Below, piece by piece: positions 16,232 through 40,700 of a DNA stretch of 57,495 nt. Below the pieces are notes generated by a model. That model was not told where the DNA came from and ran no database searches. It was given only the letters and a program-made list of their open reading frames with translations. This stretch comes from a virus. Where the stretch lies: positions 1-57,495 of the IMG/VR virus record IMGVR_UViG_3300007344_000034; one strand, 5' to 3'. The translations under genes were made by a program, and so were the position numbers. The stretch's first letter is position 1. Each line of letters begins with the position of its first letter.

Positions 16232-16351
16232 AATTGCTCATCTAATGTGCATATTATTATTACTACGTAGCTGCTATGTAACTAATGCTGCCAGCGGGGG
16301 GTAGGGGGGCGGCATATCGCGCCCAAATCAACTAAAAACCCCCACCCCAGA

Positions 16352-16387
16352 GCAGAATCGTACTTCTGTACCACAATTAGAGATAAT
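16352..16387 (+). promoter_or_regulatory. early promoter-like repeat, copy 1
   Basis: First of three ~36-bp repeats (parts GCAGAATCGTA, TGTACCACAA, TTAGAGATAAT). GATAAT can serve as -10; the -35 position (TCGTAC) is weak. It ends 50 bases before the start codon of the first early gene. The TGTACCACA segment is the reverse complement of the TGTGGTACA found in the -10 region of two stronger promoters downstream. Confidence 0.55.
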
Positions 16388-16436
16388 GGAATCGTTCCAT
16401 AGGGGAACACAACTAAAAGAGGTAACCAAGAACGTT

Positions 16437-16976: not shown

Positions 16977-16996
16977 GGCTCCCCTTCGGGGGAGCC
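16977..16996 (+). terminator. hairpin after first early transcript
   Basis: GGCTCCCC, loop TTCG, GGGGAGCC: a perfect 8-bp stem. The following bases (ATTGATGATAG) lack a U-tract, so it may act as a weak terminator or an RNA-stabilising hairpin. The first 30-bp repeat begins three bases after it. Confidence 0.65.
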
Positions 16997-16998
16997 AT

Positions 16999-17028
16999 TG
17001 ATGATAGTTATACGTACTGCGCCGAGCC
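16999..17028 (+). repeat. 30-bp direct repeat, copy 1
   Basis: Reads TGATGATAGTTA, then TACGTA, then CTGCGCCGAGCC. The outer parts are conserved in all five copies and the middle varies. It follows the first terminator hairpin. Confidence 0.75.
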
Positions 17029-17050
17029 GCCGCCGCGTCTAGGGGTCGGA

Positions 17051-17064
17051 CTAACATTTGTTAG
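17051..17064. promoter_or_regulatory. CTAACATTTGTTAG dyad, site 1
   Basis: Flanked as GGA-CTAACATTTGTTAG-TCTGA, giving most of the extended 18-bp dyad. It ends 10 bases before early promoter-like repeat copy 2 and ~25 bases before its TGTATCACAA segment. Confidence 0.75.
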
Positions 17065-17073
17065 TCTGATGGA

Positions 17074-17109
17074 GCGGAATCGTATTTATGTATCACAATT
17101 AGAGACAAT
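17074..17109 (+). promoter_or_regulatory. early promoter-like repeat, copy 2
   Basis: Parts GCGGAATCGTA, TGTATCACAA and TTAGAGACAAT match copy 1 with few changes. GACAAT would be the -10. It ends 53 bases before the start of the 216-residue gene. Confidence 0.55.
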
Positions 17110-17161
17110 ACACACATCGAAGCAATCCCGCTTCGGTGTTCCATAAAAGAGGTAATCACTC

Positions 17162-17812
17162 ATGGAAAATCAAACTAAAGTCGTTGCCGACTCAAAGGCT
17201 ACTAGCGTCCCTTCAATGAACACTGTTATTGCGGAGCTTGAAGGCTTCGCTTCCAAAGCGGTAGATTTTGACACCGCCGCCGAATCAGTGTCGGTAACCT
17301 TGCTCGAATACTTTGGTTATCAGTTCAACACTGAAAAGACGAAGGTTCTGGAAGCGTCAAAGAAAGATGCTTACCCATGGTTCAATCAAGTAGGGGACGC
17401 TATCCAGAAAGCGACCGACGACAATGGCAAAGATCTTCGTAAGTTCCGCGACACTTTATATCTAGCGTTGCATGTGCAAGCGAAGGCGAAGGCTAAAGCG
17501 ATCAACCCGTCCATCACTGATGAAGCCTTGAAGAAGGTTAAATACACGAACCCTTCAAACCGGTTCGACCAAATCAAAAGTGTGGCCAAAGGGATTGTCG
17601 AAGGTTCCCGCCGACTAGGTAAGCGCGGTGCTGACCGCACTGTAACTGAACTTGCATTGCGGGATTGTCACCCTGCATGGGCGCGGCTTGCAAAGCTCGA
17701 AGAACTCACTGACCGCGAAATGAAGATCATGAAAGCACTTGACGCTGTTATCCGCGCATGTGGACACGATCCTCAGAAGGTTGATCTGAAAGCTCTAGGC
17801 TTGAAGAAGTAA
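17162..17812 (+). CDS. unknown early protein, paralogue A
   Basis: 216 residues, hydrophilic, helical, no TM. Its last ~90 residues resemble those of the next gene: SRRLGKRGADRTVTELALRD with HPAWARLAKLEELTDRE, ending GHDPQKVDLKALGLKK. The paralogue ends GHDPQKVDLVKLGLKKS. Start ATG follows AAAAGAGGTAAT at the right distance. It has its own promoter-like repeat and its own strong terminator, so it is a single-gene unit. The conserved basic RRLGKRGAD segment could bind nucleic acid (inference). I recognise no family. Confidence 0.7.
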   Translation: MENQTKVVADSKATSVPSMNTVIAELEGFASKAVDFDTAAESVSVTLLEYFGYQFNTEKTKVLEASKKDAYPWFNQVGDAIQKATDDNGKDLRKFRDTLYLALHVQAKAKAKAINPSITDEALKKVKYTNPSNRFDQIKSVAKGIVEGSRRLGKRGADRTVTELALRDCHPAWARLAKLEELTDREMKIMKALDAVIRACGHDPQKVDLKALGLKK

Positions 17813-17819
17813 CCACAAG

Positions 17820-17845
17820 GCGACCCTTCGGGGTCGCTTTTTTTT
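17820..17845 (+). terminator. intrinsic terminator after paralogue A
   Basis: GCGACCC, loop TTCG, GGGTCGC followed by eight T residues: a textbook rho-independent terminator immediately after the stop codon. Confidence 0.93.
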
Positions 17846-17857
17846 GGCCAAAAATTT

Positions 17858-17887
17858 TGATGATAGTTATCTCCTCTGCGTTGAGCT
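17858..17887 (+). repeat. 30-bp direct repeat, copy 2
   Basis: TGATGATAGTTA, then TCTCCT, then CTGCGTTGAGCT. It starts 32 bases before copy 3, so these two form a near-tandem pair about three helical turns apart. Confidence 0.75.
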
Positions 17888-17889
17888 GT

Positions 17890-17919
17890 TGATGATAGTT
17901 AGACGTTCTGCGCCGAGCC
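17890..17919 (+). repeat. 30-bp direct repeat, copy 3
   Basis: TGATGATAGTTA, then GACGTT, then CTGCGCCGAGCC, closest to copy 1. It is the second of a near-tandem pair. Confidence 0.75.
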
Positions 17920-17942
17920 CCCTGCGCCCGCCATCGGTCAGA

Positions 17943-17956
17943 CTAACTTTTGTTAG
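17943..17956. promoter_or_regulatory. CTAACTTTTGTTAG dyad variant, site 2
   Basis: One base differs from the consensus core, breaking symmetry at one position, but the flanks GA and TC complete the outer dyad. It ends 9 bases before early promoter-like repeat copy 3, as site 1 does relative to copy 2. Confidence 0.7.
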
Positions 17957-17964
17957 TCCGATGA

Positions 17965-18000
17965 GCAGAATCGTATTTATGTACCACAAATAGAGATAAT
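17965..18000 (+). promoter_or_regulatory. early promoter-like repeat, copy 3
   Basis: Parts GCAGAATCGTA, TGTACCACAA and ATAGAGATAAT. GATAAT is a good -10. It ends 44 bases before the GTG start of paralogue B. Confidence 0.55.
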
Positions 18001-18043
18001 GGACTCGTCCAATCAAGGACATAACTAAACAGGAGTTTCCAAA

Positions 18044-18610
18044 GTGGAAAACTTAAATGATGTTGTGGCTAACACAAAAAAGCCAACTGCCAAGGCAGTA
18101 CAGGATGCACTCGTTGCTAACGCAGAGATTGCAGTTTCATCAACTCTTTCAGATGAGGACACCGCGAAAATCCTTAATCTGTTCTACGGTTGCAAGGACA
18201 AGGCATCTGGCTTCAAGTGGTATGAAGTCAAAAATGCCAAGGACTCAACCAAGGAAAAGGAAAAGGAATTGTGGGTTAAATTCCAGAATCCTTACTACAA
18301 GGCATTGCGGACTGCGTTCAAAACCAAGACCGGCAAGGACTTGTCTAATCCTTCCACTTACTGGCTTAGGATTAAGAACGCAGGCAAGGGGCTCGTTGAG
18401 GGCACTCGCAAACTTGGCAAGGGCGCGGACAAGACGCCAGAGGATAGGCTGTTAATTGCAACGTATCCGCGTTGGGCAGAGTATGCTCGTCTTGAGGAGC
18501 CTACCCACCGTCAGGCAGAGATCCAGGATCTCTTGTCTCAACTGATCTTCAAGATCGGACACGATCCACAAAAAGTGGATCTGGTTAAACTGGGGCTCAA
18601 GAAGTCCTAA
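18044..18610 (+). CDS. unknown early protein, paralogue B
   Basis: 188 residues from a GTG preceded by ACAGGAGT. The N-terminal half differs from paralogue A, but the C-terminal ~80 residues align (TRKLGKGADKTPEDRLLIAT, YPRWAEYARLEEPTHRQ, ending GHDPQKVDLVKLGLKKS). Codon choice is shifted towards AAG and CTT compared with paralogue A, suggesting old duplication or separate acquisition. It is very Lys-rich. It also has its own promoter-like repeat and terminator. Function unknown; a DNA-associated early protein is a guess. Confidence 0.7.
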   Translation: MENLNDVVANTKKPTAKAVQDALVANAEIAVSSTLSDEDTAKILNLFYGCKDKASGFKWYEVKNAKDSTKEKEKELWVKFQNPYYKALRTAFKTKTGKDLSNPSTYWLRIKNAGKGLVEGTRKLGKGADKTPEDRLLIATYPRWAEYARLEEPTHRQAEIQDLLSQLIFKIGHDPQKVDLVKLGLKKS

Positions 18611-18617
18611 CCACACG

Positions 18618-18644
18618 GGCAGACCTTCAGGTCTGCCTTTTTTT
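18618..18644 (+). terminator. intrinsic terminator after paralogue B
   Basis: GGCAGACC, loop TTCA, GGTCTGCC, then seven T residues. Strong rho-independent terminator just after the stop codon. Confidence 0.93.
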
Positions 18645-18657
18645 CGCCCGTCATCTA

Positions 18658-18687
18658 CGATGACAGTTACATCCTCTGCGTTGAGCC
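18658..18687 (+). repeat. 30-bp direct repeat, copy 4
   Basis: CGATGACAGTTA, then CATCCT, then CTGCGTTGAGCC. It begins 14 bases after the terminator, as copies 1 and 2 also follow terminators. Confidence 0.7.
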
Positions 18688-18696
18688 ATGCACCTA

Positions 18697-18726
18697 GTGT
18701 GATAGTTACACGACCTGCGTTGAGCC
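18697..18726 (+). repeat. 30-bp direct repeat, copy 5
   Basis: GTGTGATAGTTA, then CACGAC, then CTGCGTTGAGCC. It is the least conserved at the left edge and is 39 bases after copy 4. Confidence 0.65.
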
Positions 18727-18751
18727 ACTGAAGCTGCGGTGACCCATCGGA

Positions 18752-18765
18752 CTAACATTTGTTAG
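18752..18765. promoter_or_regulatory. CTAACATTTGTTAG dyad, site 3
   Basis: Perfect core at the entrance to the AT-rich region. A TGTACCACA segment follows 23 bases later, as at sites 1 and 2, but here no GCAGAATCG promoter-like repeat and no gene follow. Confidence 0.7.
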
Positions 18766-18769
18766 GCTA

Positions 18770-19115
18770 ACCCTAAAAATACAACTTTGTACCACATTGT
18801 AGTATTGTTGTAAAACCACTTTTGTATTGTTATACGCTAAGTTATTGATTTTTAAGTAAAGTATGCTTTGTTGTATTGTTGCGTTTTAAAAACGCTATTT
18901 ATAGAGATTCCAAAGAGTGCCCTCATGCAGATGCAAATCGCAAGAATCTGTCTAGAGGAAACTTATTTATTTAAAAATAAAACAATACAACAATACACCC
19001 ATTTTCACCCCTCAACACCGCGTCGTTACTCGGTTTTGCATTGTTGTATTTTTTTACAACATTAAGACCGTTTTTACAACTTTACAACAATACCCATTAT
19101 TTTGTAATACATAAA
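18770..19115. other. AT-rich non-coding region, candidate replication origin
   Basis: About 345 bases with no convincing gene and strong AT bias. The 9-mer GTATTGTTG occurs at 18802 and 18873 (variant GTATTGTTA at 18824), and its inverse CAACAATAC at 18988 and 19085 (near-copies at 18981 and 19040), so left-half copies face right-half copies. A hairpin GCGTTTT-A-AAAACGC lies at 18881-18895. It is flanked by 30-bp repeats on the left and a strong promoter on the right. The arrangement resembles iteron-type origins; function is inference. Confidence 0.45.
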
Positions 19116-19118
19116 AAC

Positions 19119-19147
19119 TTGACTTTTATGTAACTTTGTGGTACAAT
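19119..19147 (+). promoter_or_regulatory. strong sigma70 promoter with dyad over -10
   Basis: TTGACT, 17-base spacer, TACAAT. The spacer end and -10 form TTGTGGTACAA (19136-19146), an imperfect dyad with TTGT/ACAA arms. It drives the small-gene operon beginning with the 92-residue gene. A CTAACA dyad begins exactly 45 bases after the -10. Confidence 0.85.
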
Positions 19148-19191
19148 ATAAAAATGGGGCGAGATGTGTATGTACTCAGCACCCCATCTGC

Positions 19192-19205
19192 CTAACAAAT
19201 GTTAG
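19192..19205. promoter_or_regulatory. CTAACAAATGTTAG dyad, site 4
   Basis: Lies in the 5' leader of the promoter at 19119, 45 bases past its -10, and is followed by TCAGACCATTAACAA, the same sequence that follows site 7. It could be an operator blocking elongation or part of an RNA leader. Confidence 0.8.
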
Positions 19206-19235
19206 TCAGACCATTAACAATACGAGGTAACTAAT

Positions 19236-19514
19236 ATGTCTATGTCACGTGACGCGCAACGCCTGTTGCGTCAGAAAGCATGGTTCGATAAGAACGGCAA
19301 CGAACACTCACGCCTAATGGCGCAGTACATCTTCATGCAAATGCAGTTGTTGACTGAACACCCACCACAGCGTGGCTCTTACCGCTTCTATGCAAACAAC
19401 AACCCGATGCATCGTGCTATCAAAGCGCATCTTGGTTTCGATGTTGTTGATCCCGCGTGGATGAACAGAGTCACTGATGAAATCGCAGACTCTAGTGCAA
19501 AGCACATTAACTGA
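19236..19514 (+). CDS. unknown early protein, 92 aa
   Basis: 92 residues, Met/His/Arg-rich, likely helical (DAQRLLRQKAWFDKNGNEHS). ATG is preceded by ACGAGGTAACTAAT, the recurrent leader and ribosome site of this region. It is the first gene of the transcript from the strong promoter upstream. No TM, Cys cluster or catalytic motif. Family not recognised. Confidence 0.65.
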   Translation: MSMSRDAQRLLRQKAWFDKNGNEHSRLMAQYIFMQMQLLTEHPPQRGSYRFYANNNPMHRAIKAHLGFDVVDPAWMNRVTDEIADSSAKHIN

Positions 19515-19519
19515 GGAGC

Positions 19520-19533
19520 CTAACAAATGTTAG
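19520..19533. promoter_or_regulatory. CTAACAAATGTTAG dyad, site 5, over a start codon
   Basis: The ATG of the zinc-finger gene is bases 8-10 of the dyad, with GAGGAG just before it. In RNA the arms could pair with the start codon in or near the loop. Either DNA binding or translational control is possible. Confidence 0.7.
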
Positions 19534-19736
19534 TCAGATGTGTTGAGTGTGACGAACCGATCACACCAGTTAAGCGTGCAGAGCTTGGCTACACCATGTG
19601 TTTATCATGCGGCGATAAGCAGGCTCGGGCTACCGTTCGTACAGTAGCTCCAATGCACAAGAGCAACTACATGTTGTTCACCAATCTCGATGACCTGAAA
19701 GGCATCAACAATAAAGGAGGCTTTCACCGTGAGTGA
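19527..19736 (+). CDS. small zinc-finger protein, DksA/TraR-like C4 motif
   Basis: 69 residues. CxxC pairs at Cys5/8 and Cys25/28 around ITPVKRAELGYTMCLSC match the C4 zinc finger of DksA/TraR-type proteins, though the coiled-coil arm of DksA is missing. The rest is basic and short. Its start codon sits inside a CTAACA dyad. DksA-like proteins modulate host RNA polymerase through its secondary channel; without the arm this one may only share the zinc ribbon. Confidence 0.65.
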   Translation: MLVRCVECDEPITPVKRAELGYTMCLSCGDKQARATVRTVAPMHKSNYMLFTNLDDLKGINNKGGFHRE

Positions 19737-19977
19737 AATAAAGAAAATGAAGATATTAAAGAATGAAAAAGTTCCAACTCGCGGTTGGAGCAAGATTGAA
19801 AAGATAATTGATGGTATGGATTTCGATGATTGTGCGGAGTTTGATACCGAGCAAGAGGCGCAAGCCTTTTACTCAGCGGCCAAGCGATTGGTTTACCGCA
19901 AAAACAGCGAGTTTGACGTAGTGAAGAGACGCAAACGTGTATGGAAAGTAGCGAAGGAGTCAAACGATGAGGCATAA
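19729..19977 (+). CDS. unknown small protein, 82 aa
   Basis: 82 residues from a GTG with AAAGGAGG at good distance, overlapping the end of the zinc-finger gene. It is basic at both ends and has an acidic centre (DFDDCAEFDTEQEAQAFYSA). The fold appears to be alpha/beta and no known motif is visible. It belongs to a chain of overlapping small early genes. Function unknown. Confidence 0.6.
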   Translation: MSEIKKMKILKNEKVPTRGWSKIEKIIDGMDFDDCAEFDTEQEAQAFYSAAKRLVYRKNSEFDVVKRRKRVWKVAKESNDEA

Positions 19978-20152
19978 ATTGGAGAACATGGGACAGCTTG
20001 TCTACAACAAAGAGACAGCAGAGGGCGAGATCAACATACCTGAGATTCAATATGACCAAGTGGGGTTAGACATACTCCACGATTGGATCTCTGACTTGCA
20101 AGCGTTATACGACGAGATCAATGAGGAGGTTCGTGGTGAACTACGAAGATGA
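19967..20152 (+). CDS. unknown small acidic protein, 61 aa
   Basis: 61 residues, acidic, helical C-terminus (ILHDWISDLQALYDEINEEV). ATG follows GAAGGAGT. It overlaps both neighbours, consistent with coupled translation. No family recognised. Confidence 0.55.
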   Translation: MRHKLENMGQLVYNKETAEGEINIPEIQYDQVGLDILHDWISDLQALYDEINEEVRGELRR

Positions 20153-20393
20153 GTACGACGAGTACGACGAGACTAGCGGGGGTATTGATTTACGCACGCA
20201 GTTAGATTGCGCCTTGCGGATAATGACGAAAGCACAAGTGGATAACTGGCATACGCAGTTAGAAGTGATTCAACTGCAATGTGAGTTGACCGATGCGAGG
20301 CGGGCTATCCAAAGTCGTGAGTATGCGATAGAGCAACTGCAACAGCAGTTAGACACAGCGCAGACATTGTTGCGAGGAGAAACAAGTGAGTGA
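20136..20393 (+). CDS. small acidic coiled-coil protein
   Basis: 85 residues when started at a GTG six bases after AGGAGG; an ATG 15 bases upstream overlaps that ribosome site and is less likely. The N-terminus is YEDEYDEYDE, very acidic, perhaps DNA-mimic-like. The C-terminal half is a Gln-rich coiled coil (EYAIEQLQQQLDTAQTLL). An anti-host or scaffold role is only a guess from charge. Confidence 0.55.
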   Translation: MNYEDEYDEYDETSGGIDLRTQLDCALRIMTKAQVDNWHTQLEVIQLQCELTDARRAIQSREYAIEQLQQQLDTAQTLLRGETSE

Positions 20394-20589
20394 TCTAAAC
20401 GAGCAAGCGGAAGCAGTCCGCAGACTGAACGATGAGCAACTTGGCGATTTGTTTGAGGTGCTTCATTGGGTGGCGTATTGCCCTGATATTGAGTACATGG
20501 TTCCGCCATATATCGGGCGCAAAGCGCTGAATTTACTTAGAGACAAACAACAGGAGATAGAGAGTAATGCACAAGTCAAAACCAAGTAA
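20386..20589 (+). CDS. unknown small protein, 67 aa
   Basis: 67 residues from a GTG with GCGAGGAG upstream, overlapping the previous stop. Helical (LNEQAEAVRRLNDEQLGDLF), with a middle AYCPDIEYMVPPYIG. Occurs in the chain of overlapping small genes. No family recognised. Confidence 0.55.
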   Translation: MSDLNEQAEAVRRLNDEQLGDLFEVLHWVAYCPDIEYMVPPYIGRKALNLLRDKQQEIESNAQVKTK

Positions 20590-20728
20590 GCACAACCTAG
20601 TGCTTGATCGCCAGAAGGCGAAGGAGTTCATGCGTAAGCGTGAAGAATTGAAACAGAAGCGACTAACAAATGTTAGGGAGACCGACAATGGCAAAAATGT
20701 GGATAGCACCAGACGGGAGATGGAGTAG
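20567..20728 (+). CDS. 53-residue basic peptide spanning a dyad
   Basis: An ATG with GGAGATAGAGAG upstream opens a 53-codon frame overlapping the previous gene and running into the next gene's start. The product is strongly basic (LDRQKAKEFMRKREELKQKR). Codons 33-37 (LTNV and flanks) lie in a CTAACA dyad. The basic helical composition supports a real gene, but translation is unproven; alternatively the stretch is only leader for the next gene. Confidence 0.45.
   Translation: MHKSKPSKHNLVLDRQKAKEFMRKREELKQKRLTNVRETDNGKNVDSTRREME
20663..20676. promoter_or_regulatory. CTAACAAATGTTAG dyad, site 6
   Basis: Lies 11 bases before the ATG of the 323-residue gene; GGGAG immediately follows it as ribosome site. 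The internal ATG of the dyad is in frame with that gene but lacks a ribosome site. Confidence 0.75.
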
Positions 20729-21659
20729 AGCTATGTTCAAGTGTAATGCGTTTCCTCTGTTAGATACCTATATGAAGGCTCTAACACACGAGGAGCAAGT
20801 CGTGCCTATCCGAGGCACAAACCAGAAGCCAATACATATGCGCTCGCGCAAGTATATGCAGATCGCGGTGTTGCCCAACGAAGACGTTGTGTATTTCGAT
20901 GGTTGGGGCACGAAAGGTGAGCCAGTCAATGACAATGACTACATTGTTAAGTGGAAGCCGAATGGTGAGATCCACATCAACGCGCCCATGTACAACTGCG
21001 TGTACGAGCAACTGACTAGCCTGTTAGGTGTAAAGTTCTTCCGAGCTACGAACCTGTTGTGGGTATATATGGATGACGCACTACCGCTACGTCGCTATAC
21101 GGGAGGCACGCCTACGATACTGAAGTGGAAGGATGACCGCCTTGTGTATACGAACCCGCCAGAGGTAACGCAAAAAGCGATTAACCGAGGTGTCGCCAAG
21201 GCGGTGCGTGCAAAGTACAAGAGCATCTATGACTACTTGCGTGGCATGACCAAGGTGCGCGATAGCGTGTACGAGTACAGCGAGTTTATTGATGCGTTCG
21301 ATTTTAAAGCTGATGAACAGTATAGGCAGTTTAATAACAATGCGTATTTCACACTGCACCGCCTGATGCCGAAGATCTCGCTATATGTATCGTTGCCAAA
21401 GCAAGACGACATCGTGGAGTTGATCGGTATGGCTAACGAAGGAGACCTAACTGCATCGCATAAGCTGTGGCTGATATGTGCGTGGAGTAATGGTGGCCAT
21501 AGAAGTTGGCACAGCGAGAATGTGGTGTGTGCGCCTAACCAAGTAATCAAAGCGTTCGATGACTTTATCTTACGCATACATAGAGAGGAGGTTTTCTACG
21601 ATAAAGAAGTGCCTATGGGCAAATTACCAAGCACAGCGAATGAAAAGTTCTTCCGCTGA
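20688..21659 (+). CDS. unknown protein preceding the MoxR-VWA cluster
   Basis: 323 residues from MAKMWIAPDGRWSRAMFKCN; start chosen because GGGAG is at ideal distance. The N-terminal third is beta-rich (YMQIAVLPNEDVVYFDGWGT), the rest mixed, with a Trp-rich WLICAWSNGGHRSWHSENV near the C-terminus. No Walker, nuclease or zinc motif is seen. It is the last gene before the strong promoter of the MoxR gene. No family recognised. Confidence 0.65.
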   Translation: MAKMWIAPDGRWSRAMFKCNAFPLLDTYMKALTHEEQVVPIRGTNQKPIHMRSRKYMQIAVLPNEDVVYFDGWGTKGEPVNDNDYIVKWKPNGEIHINAPMYNCVYEQLTSLLGVKFFRATNLLWVYMDDALPLRRYTGGTPTILKWKDDRLVYTNPPEVTQKAINRGVAKAVRAKYKSIYDYLRGMTKVRDSVYEYSEFIDAFDFKADEQYRQFNNNAYFTLHRLMPKISLYVSLPKQDDIVELIGMANEGDLTASHKLWLICAWSNGGHRSWHSENVVCAPNQVIKAFDDFILRIHREEVFYDKEVPMGKLPSTANEKFFR

Positions 21660-21663
21660 AAAC

Positions 21664-21692
21664 TTGACACAAGACTATAATTGTGGTACAAT
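21664..21692 (+). promoter_or_regulatory. strong sigma70 promoter with dyad over -10
   Basis: TTGACA, 17-base spacer, TACAAT. As at 19119, the end of the spacer plus -10 is TTGTGGTACAA (21681-21691). It begins 5 bases after the stop of the upstream gene and drives the MoxR-VWA genes. Confidence 0.9.
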
Positions 21693-21736
21693 ATACACAC
21701 TGGCGCGGAATGAAGCATTTAGCCAGTGGGGTCGCA

Positions 21737-21750
21737 CTAACATTTGTTAG
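21737..21750. promoter_or_regulatory. CTAACATTTGTTAG dyad, site 7
   Basis: Begins 45 bases after the -10 of the promoter above, the same spacing as site 4. Followed by TCAGACCATTAACAA and the ribosome leader AGAGGTAACTAA of the MoxR gene. Confidence 0.8.
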
Positions 21751-21789
21751 TCAGACCATTAACAACTATTACATTAGAGGTAACTAAAA

Positions 21790-22854
21790 ATGTCTATTAA
21801 CTTTGGAACTACCGTTTCTTTGAAGCAAGCGGCTAACCTTATCACTAACTCACCAGAGCTAAGATACTTCTTGCAGGGTGAACCTGGGATCGGTAAGTCG
21901 TCCATCATGAAGCTGATCGGTAACAGCAAGCCCGATCACATCAAGTCCTACATGGACTGCTCACAGCTTGACCTTGGTGACATTGCGATGCCATACGTGG
22001 ACAAGGAGCAGGGCATTACGACTTACTACCCTAACGGTAGATTTGGTATGCACACACAAGAGCCAGTGCTGATGATGCTTGACGAGTTCACCAAAGCGGC
22101 TGAGCCAGTTAAGAATATGTTGCATCCGCTGCTAGAGTCGTCTAACCCGCGCCTTGGAGATATTCCAGTACACCCAGAGTCGATCATATTCCTCACGGGT
22201 AACCTGAGTACGGACGGTGTTGGCGATGTTCTCAAAGCGCATACCCGCAATCGTATTATTCCGCTAAACGTAAGGAAGCCTAGCTCCGATGAGTGGCTAG
22301 AGTGGGCGGTGAACAACGACATTGAACCAATCGTCATGTCGTGGGTGCATCAGTTCCCCCATGCGCTAGCGTCATACACTGAGGAAGGACAAGCCGAGAA
22401 CCCGTACATCTTCAACCCGAAGAAAGTACAGACCGCGTTTGTATCGCCTCGATCCTTGGAGCGAGCCTCGCACATACTGAAGCAACGCGAACATCTGGAC
22501 GCTGAGTCGCTTATAGCTGCTCTAACAGGTGCTATTGGCGAAGCCGGTGCGCGTGATATGCAAGCCTATGTCGAGTATCAGGATCAGCTACCAACGTGGG
22601 ACTCGATCATCAAGTCGCCTGAGTCGGCCACTGTACCTGACAGCGTAGGTGCTTGTGCCGTGCTTGTGTTTGGTGCGATCACCAAGGTGGATAAAAACAA
22701 TATGCCTATGTTCATGAAGTACCTAGAGCGTTTCGCTTCTGAGTGGCAAGCGTGCTTTGCAATCAACATTGCGAAGAATCCACAGAAACAATCGGTTGCA
22801 TTTAGTTCATCAGCGTTTGCTGACTGGGTGCAGAAGAACGAGGACTTACTATGA
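21790..22854 (+). CDS. MoxR-type AAA+ ATPase
   Basis: 354 residues. Walker A GEPGIGKSS at 30-38, Walker B LMMLDEF at 94-100, sensor-1 FLTGNLS at ~134-140 and Arg candidates in HTRNRII (151-157) give a complete AAA+ core of the MoxR/CobS type; the rest is a helical lid and C-terminal domain. MoxR ATPases remodel partner complexes together with VWA proteins (family knowledge), and a VWA gene lies next but one. Start follows AGAGGTAACTAAAA under a strong promoter. Partner and client are unknown. Confidence 0.85.
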   Translation: MSINFGTTVSLKQAANLITNSPELRYFLQGEPGIGKSSIMKLIGNSKPDHIKSYMDCSQLDLGDIAMPYVDKEQGITTYYPNGRFGMHTQEPVLMMLDEFTKAAEPVKNMLHPLLESSNPRLGDIPVHPESIIFLTGNLSTDGVGDVLKAHTRNRIIPLNVRKPSSDEWLEWAVNNDIEPIVMSWVHQFPHALASYTEEGQAENPYIFNPKKVQTAFVSPRSLERASHILKQREHLDAESLIAALTGAIGEAGARDMQAYVEYQDQLPTWDSIIKSPESATVPDSVGACAVLVFGAITKVDKNNMPMFMKYLERFASEWQACFAINIAKNPQKQSVAFSSSAFADWVQKNEDLL

Positions 22855-22994
22855 GAGACGAAGAAGTAGTTGAGTTGGCGTTCGACATACTAGAGGACGC
22901 AGAACTAATGCAGGAGTTTGACGACACTGTGTGGATCAGTGTTGACAAGACTCTGTGGGAACAATTCACAACAGGTGGGACTAACAAATGTTAG
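22851..22994 (+). CDS. 47-residue acidic peptide between MoxR and VWA genes
   Basis: ATG overlaps the MoxR stop (ATGA), and the frame closes with TGT TAG inside the dyad that also holds the start of the VWA gene. The product is acidic (RDEEVVELAFDILEDAELMQ) with two Trp. Coupled overlaps on both sides argue for translation. It may be a small adaptor between the two partners, or merely a bridge that couples their translation. Confidence 0.55.
   Translation: MRDEEVVELAFDILEDAELMQEFDDTVWISVDKTLWEQFTTGGTNKC
22981..22994. promoter_or_regulatory. CTAACAAATGTTAG dyad, site 8, over start and stop
   Basis: Contains the ATG of the VWA gene and the TAG of the 47-residue gene. GGTGGGA just upstream is the likely ribosome site. 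Binding here by a repressor or RNA folding would affect the VWA gene directly. Confidence 0.7.
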
Positions 22995-24199
22995 ACAGAT
23001 CTAAGATTGAACGACGGGTGAAGAAAGCCAAGATCACCCTTATGCGTAAGCCAGAATTTGCAATGTGGTCTGGCATCATGATGGTAGGCAAGACCGAAGT
23101 GCGTGATGACTTCCCAACTGCCGCGACCAACGGGCGTGACGAGATATACGGCACAGAGTTTGTGGACTCTCTCAATGACAAGGAACTTATGTTCGTTGTG
23201 CTACACGAGAACCTACACAAAGCGTTCCGTCATCTCTACATCTGGCGCAAGTTGCACGAAGAAAATTCACGGCTGGCAAATATGGCTTGTGACTACGTGA
23301 TTAACCTGATCCTGCATGACGCTGATCCATCGGAGCAGACGATTGCTATGCCTCGCAAGGACGGTGAGATATACGGGTTGTTGGATACACGGTTCCGGCA
23401 CATGAACACTAAACAAGTGTTCGACCTACTGAAGCAGGAGCAAGAAGAAGGTAAGGGACAGTCCGGAGACAGCGAAGGCGAGTCCGGTGGCTTTGACGAG
23501 CATGACTGGGACGGAGCGCAGGAACTCGATGCTGAACAGCAGGAGCAACTAGCGAAGGAAGTCGATCAGGCATTACGTCAGGGTCAGATGGCCGCCCAAA
23601 AGATAGCGGGCAAGGGCGCGGGCAATATGCCACGCGAGCTAGGAGACTTACTTGCACCCAAAGTCGATTGGCGCGAAGTGCTACGGGAGTTTGTGAACTC
23701 TGTGTGTAGTGCGAAAGACGCAAGCAGTTGGCGACGAGTCAACCGTAGGTTCGTTGGTCAGCACATCTATCTACCCTCACTGATCGGTGAGAAGGTGGGT
23801 CACGTTGTGGTTGGCATCGACACATCGGGTTCGATACAGCAAGACGAGATCACGCGGTTCTTATCCGAGGTTAAGTCTATTGTAGAAGATGTACACCCCG
23901 ACAAGCTCGACCTGATCTACTGGGATCACGAGGTTGCGAGCCATGAGGTGTATGACTCAGCCACTATGGGTACGTTGCTAGACTCAACCAAGCCTAGAGG
24001 CGGGGGAGGAACATCGCCTACCTGTGTGATGGAGTATCTCAAGCAGGAGAACATCAAGCCCGAGTGCATCATCATGCTAACTGATGGCTACATCTACGAC
24101 TGGGGTAACGAGTGGGACTCGCCTACATTGTGGGTGATTACGTCCGATCATACATCGCCTGTGGGTAAGTCAGTACAGATAACGGAGGAAGCGGCATGA
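22988..24199 (+). CDS. DUF2201-like protein: metallopeptidase-like domain plus VWA
   Basis: 403 residues. N-terminal domain has HENLH (73-77), an HExxH zinc signature, followed by NMACDYVIN with Asp102. A Glu/Gln/Gly-rich linker spans ~150-200. The C-terminal VWA domain shows the MIDAS motif DTSGS (278-282), a conserved Thr region and LTDG (364-367). This is the layout of DUF2201-type VWA proteins, which pair with MoxR ATPases. Proteolytic activity is not certain because these domains can be degenerate. The start codon lies in a CTAACA dyad. Confidence 0.8.
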   Translation: MLDRSKIERRVKKAKITLMRKPEFAMWSGIMMVGKTEVRDDFPTAATNGRDEIYGTEFVDSLNDKELMFVVLHENLHKAFRHLYIWRKLHEENSRLANMACDYVINLILHDADPSEQTIAMPRKDGEIYGLLDTRFRHMNTKQVFDLLKQEQEEGKGQSGDSEGESGGFDEHDWDGAQELDAEQQEQLAKEVDQALRQGQMAAQKIAGKGAGNMPRELGDLLAPKVDWREVLREFVNSVCSAKDASSWRRVNRRFVGQHIYLPSLIGEKVGHVVVGIDTSGSIQQDEITRFLSEVKSIVEDVHPDKLDLIYWDHEVASHEVYDSATMGTLLDSTKPRGGGGTSPTCVMEYLKQENIKPECIIMLTDGYIYDWGNEWDSPTLWVITSDHTSPVGKSVQITEEAA

Positions 24200-24438
24200 G
24201 GTTTCTATTCGAGATTGGCTACAAGTCATATGTACTTGATGCCGACCAAGCGCAGATTATCTGGGACACGATACGTGACGCGGAGATACATGAGGAGAAG
24301 CACGATGGATACGGAGATGATCGTACAACTACGTACCACGTGTACTCTCAAGATCTGTTGGGCGAACCTGTTCATATGAAGATGCTGACGGATCGTCAGT
24401 ACAACATGGCTAAGTTAGCCGGTAAACCAAAGAAGTAG
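24196..24438 (+). CDS. unknown small protein, 80 aa
   Basis: 80 residues, beginning at ATGA overlap with the VWA gene, with GGAGGAAG upstream. Alpha/beta composition with acidic centre (EIHEEKHDGYGDDRTTTY). Third or fourth gene of the MoxR transcript. No family recognised; co-translation suggests a role with the VWA protein. Confidence 0.6.
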   Translation: MRFLFEIGYKSYVLDADQAQIIWDTIRDAEIHEEKHDGYGDDRTTTYHVYSQDLLGEPVHMKMLTDRQYNMAKLAGKPKK

Positions 24439-24440
24439 GA

Positions 24441-24454
24441 CTAACATTTGTTAG
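24441..24454. promoter_or_regulatory. CTAACATTTGTTAG dyad, site 9
   Basis: Extended dyad GGACTAACATTTGTTAGTCC is nearly perfect over 20 bases. It starts 3 bases after a stop codon and lies upstream of the leader AGAGGTAACTAAAG of the DUF3150-like gene. No clear sigma70 promoter accompanies it. Confidence 0.8.
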
Positions 24455-24484
24455 TCCGACCTACAACAATAGAGGTAACTAAAG

Positions 24485-25336
24485 ATGAGTATTACAGCAA
24501 GAGCATTACTTGTAGAGCATAGCATTTCAGTTTGGACTGCTAACAAACTGGACAAACACGCTACTGACGTAGTGATAACGCAGAATTGTGCGGCAGACAA
24601 AGCCGCCCAAGTTCGCAAGAACCTGATGGCAGGGTCAAGCCAACGGAAAGACATAGCCGATTTCGCGGCAGGTTGTCGCTTGTGGCACAACGTTAAAACG
24701 TTGCCGTGGGCAAACAGTGGCGCACGTATGCTACCGACCTCGATGTTCCTAGACTACAAGCAGGAGCTTAACGACCGTAAAGCGAAGTTCGACAGTATGG
24801 TGTCGCAGTTCCTAATTGACTACCCACAACTGGTGCAGATCAGTCAGAACTACTTGGGTTCGCTGTTCAACGCAGATGACTACCCGAGCGTGGAGGAGGT
24901 AGCTGATAAGTTCGCTTACAGATACGTCATTAGCCCTGTGCCTGACTCCGGTCACTTTGTGCTTGACGTAGCAAGTGAGGAGATGAACGAGCTACGCGAG
25001 CAATACGAGAAGGACTTCAACACACGGGTGAACGATGCGATGAAGGACGCATGGACACGGCTACACAAGACGCTCACGGGTATGAGCGAGAAGCTGACCG
25101 ATGCACCGGACGAGAAGAAACGCAGGTTCCACGATACGTTTATCACCAACGCGCAGGAGATGTGCGGTCTGCTCAGTCACTTGAACGTGAACAACGACCC
25201 AGACTTGGAGTCAGCTAGACGCCAACTGGAAGTGGCTCTAATGGCTACTGACGTAGATGTAATCAAGGCTTCCGAGTACGCCCGGGGTGAGCTTAAATCG
25301 AAGGTAGATAACGTACTAGGACAATTTGAGTGGTGA
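24485..25336 (+). CDS. DUF3150-like protein
   Basis: 283 residues, mostly helical. It starts with an ARALLVEHSISVWTANKLDK segment and contains a conserved-looking LPTSMFLDYKQELNDRKAKF followed by coiled helices (EEMNELREQYEKDFNTRV). The overall pattern recalls DUF3150 proteins of phages and plasmids, which in my recollection often neighbour MoxR/CobS-type ATPase and VWA genes, as here. I am moderately sure of the family and not of a function. Start after AGAGGTAACTAAAG. Confidence 0.5.
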   Translation: MSITARALLVEHSISVWTANKLDKHATDVVITQNCAADKAAQVRKNLMAGSSQRKDIADFAAGCRLWHNVKTLPWANSGARMLPTSMFLDYKQELNDRKAKFDSMVSQFLIDYPQLVQISQNYLGSLFNADDYPSVEEVADKFAYRYVISPVPDSGHFVLDVASEEMNELREQYEKDFNTRVNDAMKDAWTRLHKTLTGMSEKLTDAPDEKKRRFHDTFITNAQEMCGLLSHLNVNNDPDLESARRQLEVALMATDVDVIKASEYARGELKSKVDNVLGQFEW

Positions 25337-26214
25337 GTAATATGTCAGATATGCAAGATACACAATTCATGCGCCCGAATATGTTCGTACGAACGGGTAG
25401 CATAGACATAGATAAAGTAGAGATGCCTACGTTCTGGGAGCCAGTAATCGTCTGGCTTGCAGACAAGTTTCCAAAGTGGAAGTTTGTGGGTTCTCACTTA
25501 ACCCAATCGGAAGCATCGCGCGTGAAGGAGCGAGAGGAGTGGAAGTGGTATCCGCGTAGGTGGACTGTGTACCTAGACGGTGAGGAGCTAGGCACAATCG
25601 GCATGGACTACTACGGCCACAAGAAGTGTTACGCGATCAGCAATGACCGCATCGGAAACAAACGTGAGCGTGGTTGGGCTGATAAGACTACCAAGATCGA
25701 GCAAGCCAAGAAGATCATTATGAAGAACTTCAGGCCGAAGGATCTGAAAGAGCTAACGACTGAGTGCGTAAACACAGTGCGTCGCAACGTAACATCCAAT
25801 GTGTATGCGTCAGCTAGCACTTACTCAAGGCTACTACAACGACTAGCGCAGTACCTTGCTGCTGACTTGGAAAGTAACTTGGATACATATATGCAAATAG
25901 CCAGAAGAGCCGGTTATACCGAGGAGCAAGAGTTCAAAGAGGCTATTGAAACAAGCAAGATTCACAGGAGCATGGACAAATGCACGCAAGAAAACAAAGG
26001 GGCGGTTGTTCTGATTCATGGGGACACGTATGCCGTACAAACCGACGACGGCCAGTTCTACACGTACGAAAATGCTACACTACCCGACTTGCTAAAACGC
26101 AGGGTCGGTATGTTGAAGCTATTGGACAACGAGCAAACGCTAATTAACGTCGGCTACCGTGAGAACGAAAACCAATACTATGTCAGCTTGGAGGAAGATA
26201 ATGGAGCAACCTAA
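25333..26214 (+). CDS. unknown protein, 293 aa
   Basis: Starts probably at a GTG overlapping the previous stop (GTGA); ATG three codons later (MSDMQDTQFMRPNMFV) is the alternative. The N-terminal half has beta strands with several Trp (EEWKWYPRRWTVYLDGEELG), the C-terminal half is helical, ending with NVGYRENENQYYVSLEED. No catalytic motif is seen. It follows the DUF3150-like gene without a gap and is probably part of the same functional set. No family recognised. Confidence 0.6.
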   Translation: MSNMSDMQDTQFMRPNMFVRTGSIDIDKVEMPTFWEPVIVWLADKFPKWKFVGSHLTQSEASRVKEREEWKWYPRRWTVYLDGEELGTIGMDYYGHKKCYAISNDRIGNKRERGWADKTTKIEQAKKIIMKNFRPKDLKELTTECVNTVRRNVTSNVYASASTYSRLLQRLAQYLAADLESNLDTYMQIARRAGYTEEQEFKEAIETSKIHRSMDKCTQENKGAVVLIHGDTYAVQTDDGQFYTYENATLPDLLKRRVGMLKLLDNEQTLINVGYRENENQYYVSLEEDNGAT

Positions 26215-26362
26215 ACGCACAAGGGGGAAGCAGAAAGCGCCTACGCTTGTACACGTAAATCTGCGAGTCCCTCAAGAAGTTTTGGACTACTATAAACAGT
26301 GGCCGAGCTATACCAAAATGATGCGAACCGTACTTACGAATTACGCTGAATCGCAAAAGTAA
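26201..26362 (+). CDS. BrnA-like ribbon-helix-helix protein
   Basis: 53 residues from an ATG with GGAGGAAG upstream. After a basic leader (KRTRGKQKAP) the sequence VHVNLRVPQEVLDYYKQWPS followed by MRTVLTNYAESQK has the beta strand-helix-helix order of BrnA/DUF4415 antitoxins. No BrnT toxin gene lies nearby, so it is more likely a stand-alone DNA-binding regulator. It is a candidate for binding the CTAACA dyad, one copy of which follows 55 bases downstream. Confidence 0.6.
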   Translation: MEQPKRTRGKQKAPTLVHVNLRVPQEVLDYYKQWPSYTKMMRTVLTNYAESQK

Positions 26363-26367
26363 TATGA

Positions 26368-26391
26368 AGCCCCGCTAGTCGGGGCTTTTTT
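26368..26391 (+). terminator. intrinsic terminator
   Basis: AGCCCCG, loop CTAGT, CGGGGCT, then a run of T. It separates the MoxR-VWA/RHH unit from the replication genes. Confidence 0.93.
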
Positions 26392-26416
26392 ACGCCTGTA
26401 CGACAAAGGGGTAGGA

Positions 26417-26430
26417 CTAACAAATGTTAG
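26417..26430. promoter_or_regulatory. CTAACAAATGTTAG dyad, site 10
   Basis: Extended dyad GGACTAACAAATGTTAGTCT. It lies after the terminator and just before a TTGACA hexamer, so it could control entry into the replication genes. Confidence 0.8.
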
Positions 26431-26452
26431 TCTGATCCCCCAGAAAAAATGT

Positions 26453-37763: not shown

Positions 37764-37787
37764 CCCCGCCTTGTGCGGGGTTTTTTT
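37764..37787 (+). terminator. intrinsic terminator between converging units
   Basis: CCCCGC, loop CTTGT, GCGGGG, then seven T. It stops early-strand transcription just before the 3' end of the giant late gene. The hairpin is formed on the other strand too, but without a U-tract there. Confidence 0.92.
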
Positions 37788-40700
37788 AATAGAACGAATA
37801 GTCCATACGACTCATGTTAATGGCGTCCCGCATTATTGGACTAATAGATACCCCATCAAACATTTCTGCAGAAGCCTTAATATGCTGCTTCATTGATTTA
37901 TCTAAGGTCTCCCCATCTATCGCTGCGTATGGATGCCGGTCGTTGTAGTCTAGTATTTCGTCTATAGCATCTGACATAGCGTCTAGATCCCCCGCACGAG
38001 CCGCGATGTAATACTTACGTAACAGCTTAGTACGTGTTGTGGTAACGGCTTTTTCTATGCGCTTATCCCGCAAATTACGTTCTTGCCGCGCTGTGTATTC
38101 AGCAGGTGGGAAGCCAAGAAGCTGAGCAGCTAGTTCACCGTGCGTCATGTCAGCATAAATGGGGTCGCCCCGACGAGTATATATACCGTCATCTTTTTGG
38201 TAACGCCCTATGGGCATAGCTTTGTAAGCATTTGATATAGCAGCGGGTAGCATATTTTCTATACCGCGTTCGATATTGCCCTCTTGGAGATCAGCCACCC
38301 CACGTGCGAACCGCTTACCCACACTTAGAGCAGGGCCACCCAGATAGAACAATAAATTTTCTTCTGGAGACGCATTAGTGTTGTATCTATTCTCTTGGAT
38401 AACAAGTCCTGTTAGCCGTACGCGACTAGCTACATCAAGCCCAGTAAGTTCGTTTAGTGGGCCTTTGAAATAAAATTCACCTATAGCTTTACGCACTACG
38501 GTGTCAAAATCATCTTCGTCTTCGTCAGCAAATGTGTTGTACGCAAGTGCTATGGCTCCGTATATAGGGATACCGTATACCCCTGCAAACAAAGCTGCCG
38601 ATCCATGCAAACCTACCAATTGCTTAAACGCCACGTTACGTTTTCGTTTAGTTTCCGCATCGGAACCCGGATACATGCCTTTCAGTAGGTCGCGTAAGGC
38701 CATAAACATCGTGGTATACATACGCACGCCGAAGCCTTTGTACATACCCGCTACACGCCCCACGTTTTGATTTGTATAACGCATGCCGGTTTCGATGACA
38801 GTTCCACCGTTAACCATTTGAGTTTTTTCGATAGCTTCTTCAATAGCTCGTTTTTTCACTACAGAGTCAGCCAGTTTACGATCTGCGGGACGAGCGTCGT
38901 TTAATTTCTTCTGGCGTTCAATAGCCATTTGATAAATAGCCATCAGCGTAACTTGACGGTTAAATCTTTCGCCGTGGTTGAACATAAACGCACTGAGTCC
39001 GGTAATCGTATCCAGTAGGTTCTTCTGCTCCCCCAGTGCTATAACGTCTGCTATGTAAGTCTGGTTTAACAAACCACGCCCGGAGGCTTCTTGAACTACA
39101 GGCGCTAGTTCCTCTAACAGCGCTCTCTGCCTAGCATCGGTTACAGTATCCATTACTGCAAAGTTACCTTGCTCATCTAGGGTGTAGTAGCTTTCTATAT
39201 TGTTTTTGAACACCCCTACTTGGTTCATAGCCTTACGTATAGCACCATATGCATTAGTGTATCCGTAGTCTGCCCCCAGATAAGGGAATGCAAACAACGG
39301 CACTTGTGACATATTCACCAAATAAGAAGACACGTTAAACCCGATAGTGAATAAGAAAGCGGACTGGTTAAGAGTCTTAGCTATTTCTTCTGCGCCCTTA
39401 AATCTTGCGCCTTCTCTAGCAAAGTTAATACGATCATTAAGCTCTCGGGTTACAACCCGTATAGAATCGTGATACTTTCTTTGCGCTCTTCTAGGGTTAC
39501 GTGACCCCGCTATTTCGATCATGCGCTGCATATACTCTACGGTAAGATTATTAGCCCGAGCTATGTCGTACAACGTAGAATTAGGGTTTCTTTCTATTAA
39601 GGCTTGCACTTGTTGATAAGTAGGTAGCGCAAAATTGTTTATAGTATTTTGATAAGCATTTAGCTCTTTAACCGCTTGCATACGCACGACTTGGCGCCCG
39701 AACTCAAAGGCGCGATTTTTAAGCGCTAGCAGTGAATTTGCTTCATAACCTAGTGTTCCCTTACGTTTTTGTAAGGACCGCGCAATAGCTGTTTGCGGTA
39801 GAGCATTTACAAATGTACGCAATACCTGTTCGCGCAAAGCTCTACCAGCCTCACCGCTGGTCTCTGGGTTGTTATTTAACGCTGTAAGCAAGGCGTTAAC
39901 AAAAGAAGATGGTGGGGACTCTTTAGCTACTTGCTCCATAGACCCAGAATCATCGGTACTAAAGGACTCGTTAATCACCGTTGGGTCGTTTGAAAGCTCT
40001 AATATAGCTCGTTCACGTTGTTTGTCAGTTTCAAAAAACCTTACAACATAGGGTTCCACACCTCTTTCGACTGAATTAGGGTCTAGATTGTAGGAAAGCA
40101 TGAACTTACCTACACGTTCTAATGGAAAGTAAACTTCTAACGTGTCTTGCTCGGCTAGTAACCTACTTATGAGCGTCTGCCGTACGCTAGCATCTTGGTC
40201 ACCGGGCATTATGTCTTTGAAAGTGGCTTGTATTATTTCCAACATTGATTTGCGTTGGTCAGAATAAAACTTGCGTAACCGGTTAAACATCTGTTGTCCG
40301 TTTACACCGCCTTTACCTACATCTCTGCCTATTTGATTCCATACTCGTTGCAAGTCATCCCATACATCGCCTAAATCTGTTACGTCATCCTTTGCCAGTT
40401 TCCCAGCATATTCAGACCTAGGTTTATTGGGGTCTATTTGGAAGATAGTTGCGCCAAATTCGCTGCTGTAAACAACAGCGTTAAATCTAGCTTCCGCCTG
40501 TGGGCCTACAGAATCAAACCACTCAGCAAGATTATCTACTTCGTCCTGAACTGCTTGATCTGATTTAACAAGCCTAGCGCGTTGAGTTTCAATGGAGCGC
40601 TGTACTTTAAACCCGGTCCTACCCATACCAAGCGCTTCGTATATTTGACTAACTGTAAGTAAATCAGCGGCACCAAGTAGTGTGCGTTGAGCAAACAGTC

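What the first reader, a model, noticed from the sequence alone, without database searches (positions are those of the whole stretch)
21790..26214. Phage-borne MoxR ATPase - VWA/HExxH - DUF3150-like gene cluster under its own regulatory dyads
MoxR ATPases with VWA partners (RavA-ViaA, CobS-CobT, NorQ-NorD) act as chaperone-like machines that insert metals or remodel complexes. Here a MoxR protein, a 47-residue acidic peptide, a DUF2201-type protein with HENLH plus DTSGS motifs, an 80-residue protein, a DUF3150-like protein and a 293-residue unknown form one early set. The early timing implies action on a host target rather than virion assembly. The full set with its small peptide and dyads appears to be an undescribed system.
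Basis: partly seen in the sequence, partly recalled or inferred. Interest (0 to 1): 0.75.

Follow-up and report, generated by a model that had tools for sequence, protein, structure and literature searches.

The report
Phage–plasmid MoxR–DUF3150–VWA protein machine
A phage from environmental DNA carries an early operon for a probable ATP-driven protein-remodelling machine of three parts (an ATPase, a metal-protease-like partner and a helper of unknown role) that is also carried by conjugative plasmids, so it probably helps incoming mobile DNA get established rather than build virus particles.

Summary
The genes are real and form a conserved operon. MoxR lies just upstream of the VWA protein in 100/107 related IMG/VR loci, and VWA upstream of the 283-aa protein in 117/121. 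The 80-aa and 294-aa genes follow in most. The VWA protein has invariant HExxH and MIDAS residues and a VWA fold. The 283-aa protein belongs to the DUF3150 superfamily. The 47-residue peptide is not part of the system; a conserved 53-aa gene (26201-26362) was missed. The dyads are real but not private to the cluster: ten DNA-operator-type sites over 17.0-26.4 kb, whose sequence differs between near-identical relatives.

The MoxR/VWA-metallopeptidase pair is already described in phages (N4 gp24/gp25; jumbo phages, where virion assembly was proposed). New here is DUF3150 as a recurrent third component. MoxR-DUF3150-VWA is found on plasmids and in about 50 Burkholderiaceae loci. A parallel AAA-DUF3150-CobT/VWA set sits beside ssb-bet-exo on IncC-type conjugative plasmids. 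Plasmids make no virions, so a role in early establishment or processing of incoming DNA is more likely. The target is unknown and nothing was tested experimentally. Verdict: new variant of a known kind, moderately interesting.

The parts
21664..21692 (+). sigma70 promoter with extended -10 (TTGACA-17-TACAAT, TG before the -10)
   Evidence: 11 of 12 consensus; promoter-like site upstream of MoxR in 86/108 relatives
21735..21752 (.). dyad (operator-like), about 43 bp after the -10 box
21790..22854 (+). MoxR-type AAA+ ATPase, 354 aa
   Evidence: phrog_1297 3.6e-49; invariant Walker A, Walker B, sensor and arginine residues
22851..22994 (+). 47-aa acidic ORF; not part of the conserved set
   Evidence: no match in the closest relatives; scattered in other loci
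22979..22996 (.). dyad overlapping the VWA start codon
22988..24199 (+). metallopeptidase-like (HExxH) + VWA protein, DUF2201, 403 aa
24196..24438 (+). 80-aa conserved accessory protein (invariant AGKP)
   Evidence: downstream of VWA in 130/149; alignment
24439..24456 (.). dyad between the 80-aa gene and the DUF3150-like gene
24485..25336 (+). DUF3150-superfamily protein, 283 aa; third core component
25330..26214 (+). 294-aa fast-evolving accessory protein
   Evidence: downstream of the DUF3150 gene in 125/145; 30% mean column identity
26201..26362 (+).
   Evidence: found in 126 loci
26369..26391 (+). intrinsic terminator, end of the unit
   Evidence: GCCCCGCTAGTCGGGGC then TTTTTT
26415..26432 (.). 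dyad of the next unit
17049..20678 (.). six further dyads (17049, 17941, 18750, 19190, 19518, 20661): the array covers the early region

Best explanation
The operon encodes a three-part ATP-driven protein-remodelling machine. A MoxR AAA+ ring supplies the force. The DUF2201 protein docks to it, grips a client through its VWA MIDAS site and probably clips or metal-dependently processes it through its HExxH domain. The DUF3150 protein is the third core subunit, likely a helical adaptor or scaffold. In this phage lineage three more proteins (80, 294 and 53 aa) are added; the fast-evolving 294-aa protein is the best candidate for the part that meets a varying host target. The machine is made early from a host-type promoter and most likely acts on protein complexes on the element's newly entered DNA (replication, recombination or nuclease complexes), not on virions. 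Shown: operon, conservation, motifs, VWA fold, triad on plasmids and phages. Inferred: complex formation, proteolysis, the role of each part, the DNA-linked target.
For: Synteny in more than 100 IMG/VR loci. The same three genes together in 6/6 plasmid loci opened, adjacent in five, and in about 50 bacterial genome loci. Canonical DUF3150 genes mostly sit between an AAA_5/CbbQ_C ATPase and a CobT-type HExxH/VWA protein; on conjugative plasmids they sit beside or near ssb, bet, exo, radC, exonuclease or helicase genes. 978 of 1168 plasmid records with a DUF3150 homologue are typed conjugative. Here the operon is followed by an Hjc-like resolvase and PolA in most relatives; in N4-like LIT1 the pair sits beside helicase and DNA polymerase. 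Catalytic and MIDAS residues are invariant. A promoter-like site is conserved upstream of MoxR.
Against: No client is known and no complex was modelled. The DUF3150 model matches nothing significant in the PDB. HExxH is lost or changed in 7 of 65 bacterial, plasmid or other-phage copies, so proteolysis cannot be the core activity everywhere. The N4-like pair has no DUF3150 homologue in the candidate tested, so the third part is not universal. Linkage to DNA genes is only suggestive, since early phage regions are rich in them. Iyer et al. proposed virion assembly for the pair.
Confidence: 0.5

Rival explanations
1. Virion-assembly chaperone and protease: MoxR-VWA helps fold or process structural proteins, as proposed for jumbo phages and by analogy with the Acidianus two-tailed virus.
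For: Explicit proposal for the same domain architecture in group 2.2 jumbo phages (PMC7824862); the pair is widespread in phages.
Against: The triad is carried by plasmids that make no virions; the cluster lies with DNA-replication genes on the + strand, while terminase, portal, tail-fibre and virion genes found here lie on the - strand.
Confidence: 0.17
2. Metal chelatase or metal-insertion machine (CobST-, NorQD- or CoxDE-like) that matures a metalloenzyme.
For: Canonical DUF3150 loci pair with CobT-type VWA and CbbQ_C-type ATPases.
Against: No CobN in the window; no metalloenzyme found beside the operon. CobT labels may reflect shared domain architecture only; the profile match between the DUF2201-type and CobT-type proteins is weak.
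Confidence: 0.1
3. Competition or defence module: mobile elements carry the triad to exclude or attack other invaders, like the MoxR-VWA ternary conflict systems.
For: Shared by phages and plasmids; MoxR-VWA ternary conflict systems exist (PMC7159879).
Against: No PADLOC match beyond one chance-level hit for any part; no VMAP or effector domain among family matches.
Confidence: 0.15
4. The genes only share a transcript and have separate functions.
For: Gene order differs between phages and plasmids, and other genes intervene in MinM2 and in the Simplicispira plasmid.
Against: Three families stay together across unrelated elements and gene orders, and two different VWA types pair with DUF3150.
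Confidence: 0.08

Closest known systems
MoxR-vWA/metallopeptidase pair of jumbo phages (Iyer et al. 2021, PMC7824862) and N4 gp24/gp25
   Same: Same two protein types: MoxR ATPase and VWA protein with an N-terminal metallopeptidase domain; pair near replication genes in LIT1
   Different: Here a DUF3150 protein plus 80-, 294- and 53-aa proteins are added; no DUF3150 homologue in the LIT1 candidate tested
AAA-DUF3150-VWA set of IncC/MOBH conjugative plasmids
   Same: Same three domain families, linked to recombination genes
   Different: CobT-type instead of DUF2201-type VWA protein in the family members scanned; in pTC2 ssb-bet-exo lie between AAA and DUF3150; weak direct profile matches
Burkholderiaceae plasmid/genome operon MoxR-DUF3150-DUF2201
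   Same: Direct homologues of all three core parts
   Different: Gene order; no 80- or 294-aa genes between or after in the loci opened; HExxH lost in some copies
RavA-ViaA, CobS-CobT, NorQ-NorD, midasin
   Same: MoxR-type AAA+ with VWA/MIDAS partner; midasin is the closest solved ATPase by profile and MDN1-MIDAS is among the VWA fold matches
   Different: No RavA- or CobN-type extra parts found; target unknown

Membership tests
MoxR AAA+ ATPase | Walker A, Walker B, sensor and arginine residues of AAA+ | tested here: met
   G30, G33, G35, K36, D98, E99, N138, R155, R221 invariant in 38 relatives, most also in plasmid homologues
MoxR AAA+ ATPase | Match to AAA_5 above the Pfam cut-off | tested here: inconclusive
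   Window protein 19.7 bits, cut-off 22; plasmid and MinM2 homologues pass
MoxR AAA+ ATPase | Hexameric ring, ATP hydrolysis | not testable with these tools
   No complex prediction or assay available
DUF2201 metallopeptidase-VWA protein | DUF2201_N and DUF2201 domains | tested here: met
   101 and 69.9 bits, cut-offs 23.2 and 26.4
DUF2201 metallopeptidase-VWA protein | MIDAS residues and VWA fold | tested here: met
   D278, S280, S282, T342, D366 invariant; Foldseek VWA matches at probability 1.00
DUF2201 metallopeptidase-VWA protein | Metal binding or proteolysis by HExxH | not testable with these tools
DUF3150 | Match to PF11348 | tested here: met
   Window protein alone is below the cut-off (15.5 vs 24.9 bits), but family profile A6 aligns with a true PF11348 member at 99.8%, L279 passes PF11348 and the A6 profile (1e-79), and the best viral fold match is a named DUF3150 protein
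Cobaltochelatase CobNST | CobN large subunit | tested here: not met
   PF02514 absent from the window record
RavA-ViaA | RavA-specific domains and ViaA-type partner | tested here: not met
   Only general AAA families match the ATPase; the partner matches DUF2201
MoxR-VWA ternary conflict systems | VMAP or effector third component | tested here: not met
   No such match among Pfam or PADLOC results
Stoperator-like repressor array (dyads) | Many copies of one DNA site in early regions | tested here: met
   10 copies here; similar arrays in relatives
Stoperator-like repressor array (dyads) | Known repressor and lysogeny functions | not tested
   No integrase or repressor among the family matches made, but not every gene was scanned; the binding protein was not identified

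The most novel reading that the evidence does not exclude
MoxR-DUF3150-VWA is a general, unnamed three-component ATP-driven remodelling protease that phages and conjugative plasmids share to establish incoming DNA, by dismantling or processing a host nuclease, recombination or defence complex; in this phage lineage it is expressed at once from a strong host-type promoter and controlled through a DNA-operator array whose specificity switches as a whole between close relatives.
Probability: 0.25. Interest if true: 0.8.

Novelty: new variant of a known kind. Interest (0 to 1): 0.52.

Why it matters
DUF3150 is a widespread protein family with no known role: it passes the Pfam cut-off in 30 of 395 sampled genomes of one phylum and 8 of 398 of another, a homologue is in 1168 plasmid records, most of them conjugative, and no open-access paper searched mentions it. 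Showing that it is the third partner of MoxR-VWA machines, in two different pairings (DUF2201-type and CobT-type), gives it a testable role. The sharing between phages and conjugative plasmids argues against the published virion-assembly proposal for at least this branch and points to establishment of incoming DNA, which bears on how broad-host-range plasmids and phages take hold in new cells.

Tried and rejected
RNA hairpin reading of the dyads: rejected, since only 4 of 140 single-mismatch sites make a G-U pair and the flanks hardly extend the stem. The 53-aa protein as the protein that sets dyad specificity: considered because it looks like a ribbon-helix-helix protein by eye, but no family or PDB match supports that, and L094 and L096 carry near-identical 53-aa proteins with different dyads. 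LIT1 ORF31, phage G gp569 and MinM2 gp72 as DUF3150 homologues: no match. The 47-aa peptide as a system part: rejected. Defence system: no convincing PADLOC match. CobN partner: absent. Rfam: nothing. PDB fold search with the DUF3150 model: nothing significant. A genome scan with alignment A6 failed for lack of conserved blocks and was replaced by a plasmid-only alignment. Two papers read for the plasmid homologues do not discuss them.

Full report
What is there. The window is a 57,495-bp virus record. Between 21,790 and 26,362 on the + strand lies a close-packed set: MoxR ATPase (354 aa), a 47-aa ORF, a DUF2201 protein (403 aa), an 80-aa protein, a 283-aa DUF3150-like protein, a 294-aa protein and a 53-aa protein that overlaps its end (53-aa gene). 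A sigma70 promoter with 11 of 12 consensus bases and a TG extension lies at 21,664-21,692, and a clear intrinsic terminator at 26,369-26,391.

Is it more than chance? In loci fetched with the VWA and 283-aa proteins, MoxR lies directly upstream of VWA in 100 of 107, VWA upstream of the 283-aa gene in 117 of 121, the 80-aa gene after VWA in 130 of 149, the 294-aa gene after the 283-aa gene in 125 of 145, an Hjc-like resolvase next in 94 of 113, and PolA downstream in 79 of 87. The loci were found with two of the genes, some contigs occur twice, and the lineage is related by descent, so these counts show conservation, not independent events. The 47-aa ORF is not conserved: it has no match in the two closest relatives and lies elsewhere in the nine other loci that have it. 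The 53-aa gene is present in 126 loci.

What the proteins are. MoxR: phrog_1297 'ATPase' at 3.6e-49; the Pfam AAA_5 match is just below its cut-off. The AAA+ residues are invariant in 38 relatives, and the best solved match to its profile is midasin. VWA: DUF2201_N and DUF2201 well above cut-offs. H73, E74, H77, H82, D102 and the MIDAS residues D278, S280, S282, T342, D366 are invariant in 45 relatives, and nearly all of them also across plasmid, N4-like and jumbo-phage homologues. Its AlphaFold2 model (pLDDT 79) matches VWA domains including MDN1-MIDAS at Foldseek probability 1.00. PHROG 1314 calls this family 'HNH endonuclease', which the domain matches do not support. DUF3150-like: the window protein alone is below the Pfam cut-off. 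However, its family profile aligns with a true PF11348 member end to end at 99.8%, a bacterial protein (L279) passes both models, and its model (pLDDT 81) has a named DUF3150 protein as best viral match and no significant PDB match. The 294-aa protein evolves fast (30% mean column identity, against 60-67% for the core).

Beyond this lineage. The VWA protein and MoxR have homologues in 790 and 392 phage records. In LIT1 the pair sits beside helicase and DNA polymerase, with no DUF3150 homologue in the candidate tested. Phage MinM2, with a related terminase, has MoxR, DUF3150 and VWA in a different order. Six plasmid loci opened all have MoxR, then DUF3150, then VWA; in five the three genes are adjacent, in Simplicispira other genes lie between MoxR and DUF3150. 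About 50 Burkholderiaceae and related genome loci show the same order. Genes of the canonical DUF3150 family sit mostly between an AAA_5/CbbQ_C ATPase and a CobT-type HExxH/VWA protein. 1168 plasmid records have a DUF3150 homologue, 978 of them typed conjugative. Three were opened: pTC2 has AAA, a hypothetical, ssb, bet, exo, DUF3150, VWA; a Pseudomonas veronii plasmid has AAA, DUF3150, VWA near an exonuclease and a helicase; a Vibrio plasmid has ssb, bet, exo, AAA, DUF3150, VWA, radC with small genes between. Direct profile matches between the window-type and the pTC2 and P. veronii proteins are weak; the link runs through the Pfam family and the shared domain set.

Mechanism. From MoxR-VWA biology (established knowledge; PMC7159879) the ATPase and VWA protein should form a chaperone-cochaperone pair. 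The HExxH domain suggests clipping or metal-dependent action in this phage lineage, but its loss or change in 7 of 65 bacterial, plasmid or other-phage copies means it is not needed everywhere. DUF3150 is the constant third part of this branch. Because plasmids have no virions, the published virion-assembly proposal (PMC7824862) does not fit this branch well; the recurrent neighbours are replication and recombination genes. I therefore favour action on protein complexes on incoming DNA. The client is unknown and this step is inference.

The dyads. GACTAACAWWTGTTAGTC occurs ten times between 17,049 and 26,432, against 0.05 expected. Three copies (19518, 20661, 22979) contain the start codon of the next ORF. 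Related genomes carry similar arrays, often with other sequences. G013, whose 283-aa protein is 92% identical, has eight copies of GTTACAWTGTAAC instead. Among 780 distinct sites, only 4 of 140 single-mismatch sites form G-U pairs, where random change would give about 23, and the flanks hardly extend the stem; this fits DNA sites, not RNA hairpins. Where a promoter-like site is present, dyads tend to lie 35-59 bp after the -10 box, and MoxR has a promoter-like site in 86 of 108 relatives and a dyad in 70 of 108. Most dyads have no such promoter next to them. This resembles stoperator arrays of mycobacteriophages (PMC9283540, PMC6550527, listed), but the sites are palindromic and no repressor was identified.

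Limits. No complex was modelled, model coordinates could not be inspected, no expression data exist, the host is unknown, and the literature search covers open-access papers only (no paper with the word DUF3150).

Noticed in passing
window 17049-26432; G013 (L241-L244); L094, L096: Arrays of near-identical palindromes in the early region; closely related phages carry arrays of different sequence, as if all sites switched together. The DNA-binding protein is unknown; the 216-aa and 188-aa early genes are candidates.
   Followed up: partly
window 26201-26362: Conserved 53-aa protein after the 294-aa gene, found in 126 loci; looks like a ribbon-helix-helix protein by eye but has no family match.
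   Followed up: partly
window 16350-16400, 17072-17122, 17963-18013 and 16992-17036, 17883-17927: Long direct repeats upstream of the first early genes, possibly promoter-leader cassettes.
   Followed up: no
window 37786-45021: 2411-aa protein whose C-terminal part matches a DarB-like antirestriction PHROG.
   Followed up: no
L165, L189, L192, L193, L195, L205, L221: VWA proteins in bacterial or plasmid triads that lost or changed HExxH, including an HDVLH variant, while the triad is kept.
   Followed up: no
L295, L296, L297: IncC and other MOBH conjugative plasmids carry AAA-DUF3150-VWA beside or near recombination and repair genes (ssb, bet, exo, radC, exonuclease); one VWA protein is annotated as NorD.
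   Followed up: partly
PHROG 1314 and many phage records: DUF2201 VWA proteins are widely annotated 'HNH endonuclease'.
   Followed up: no
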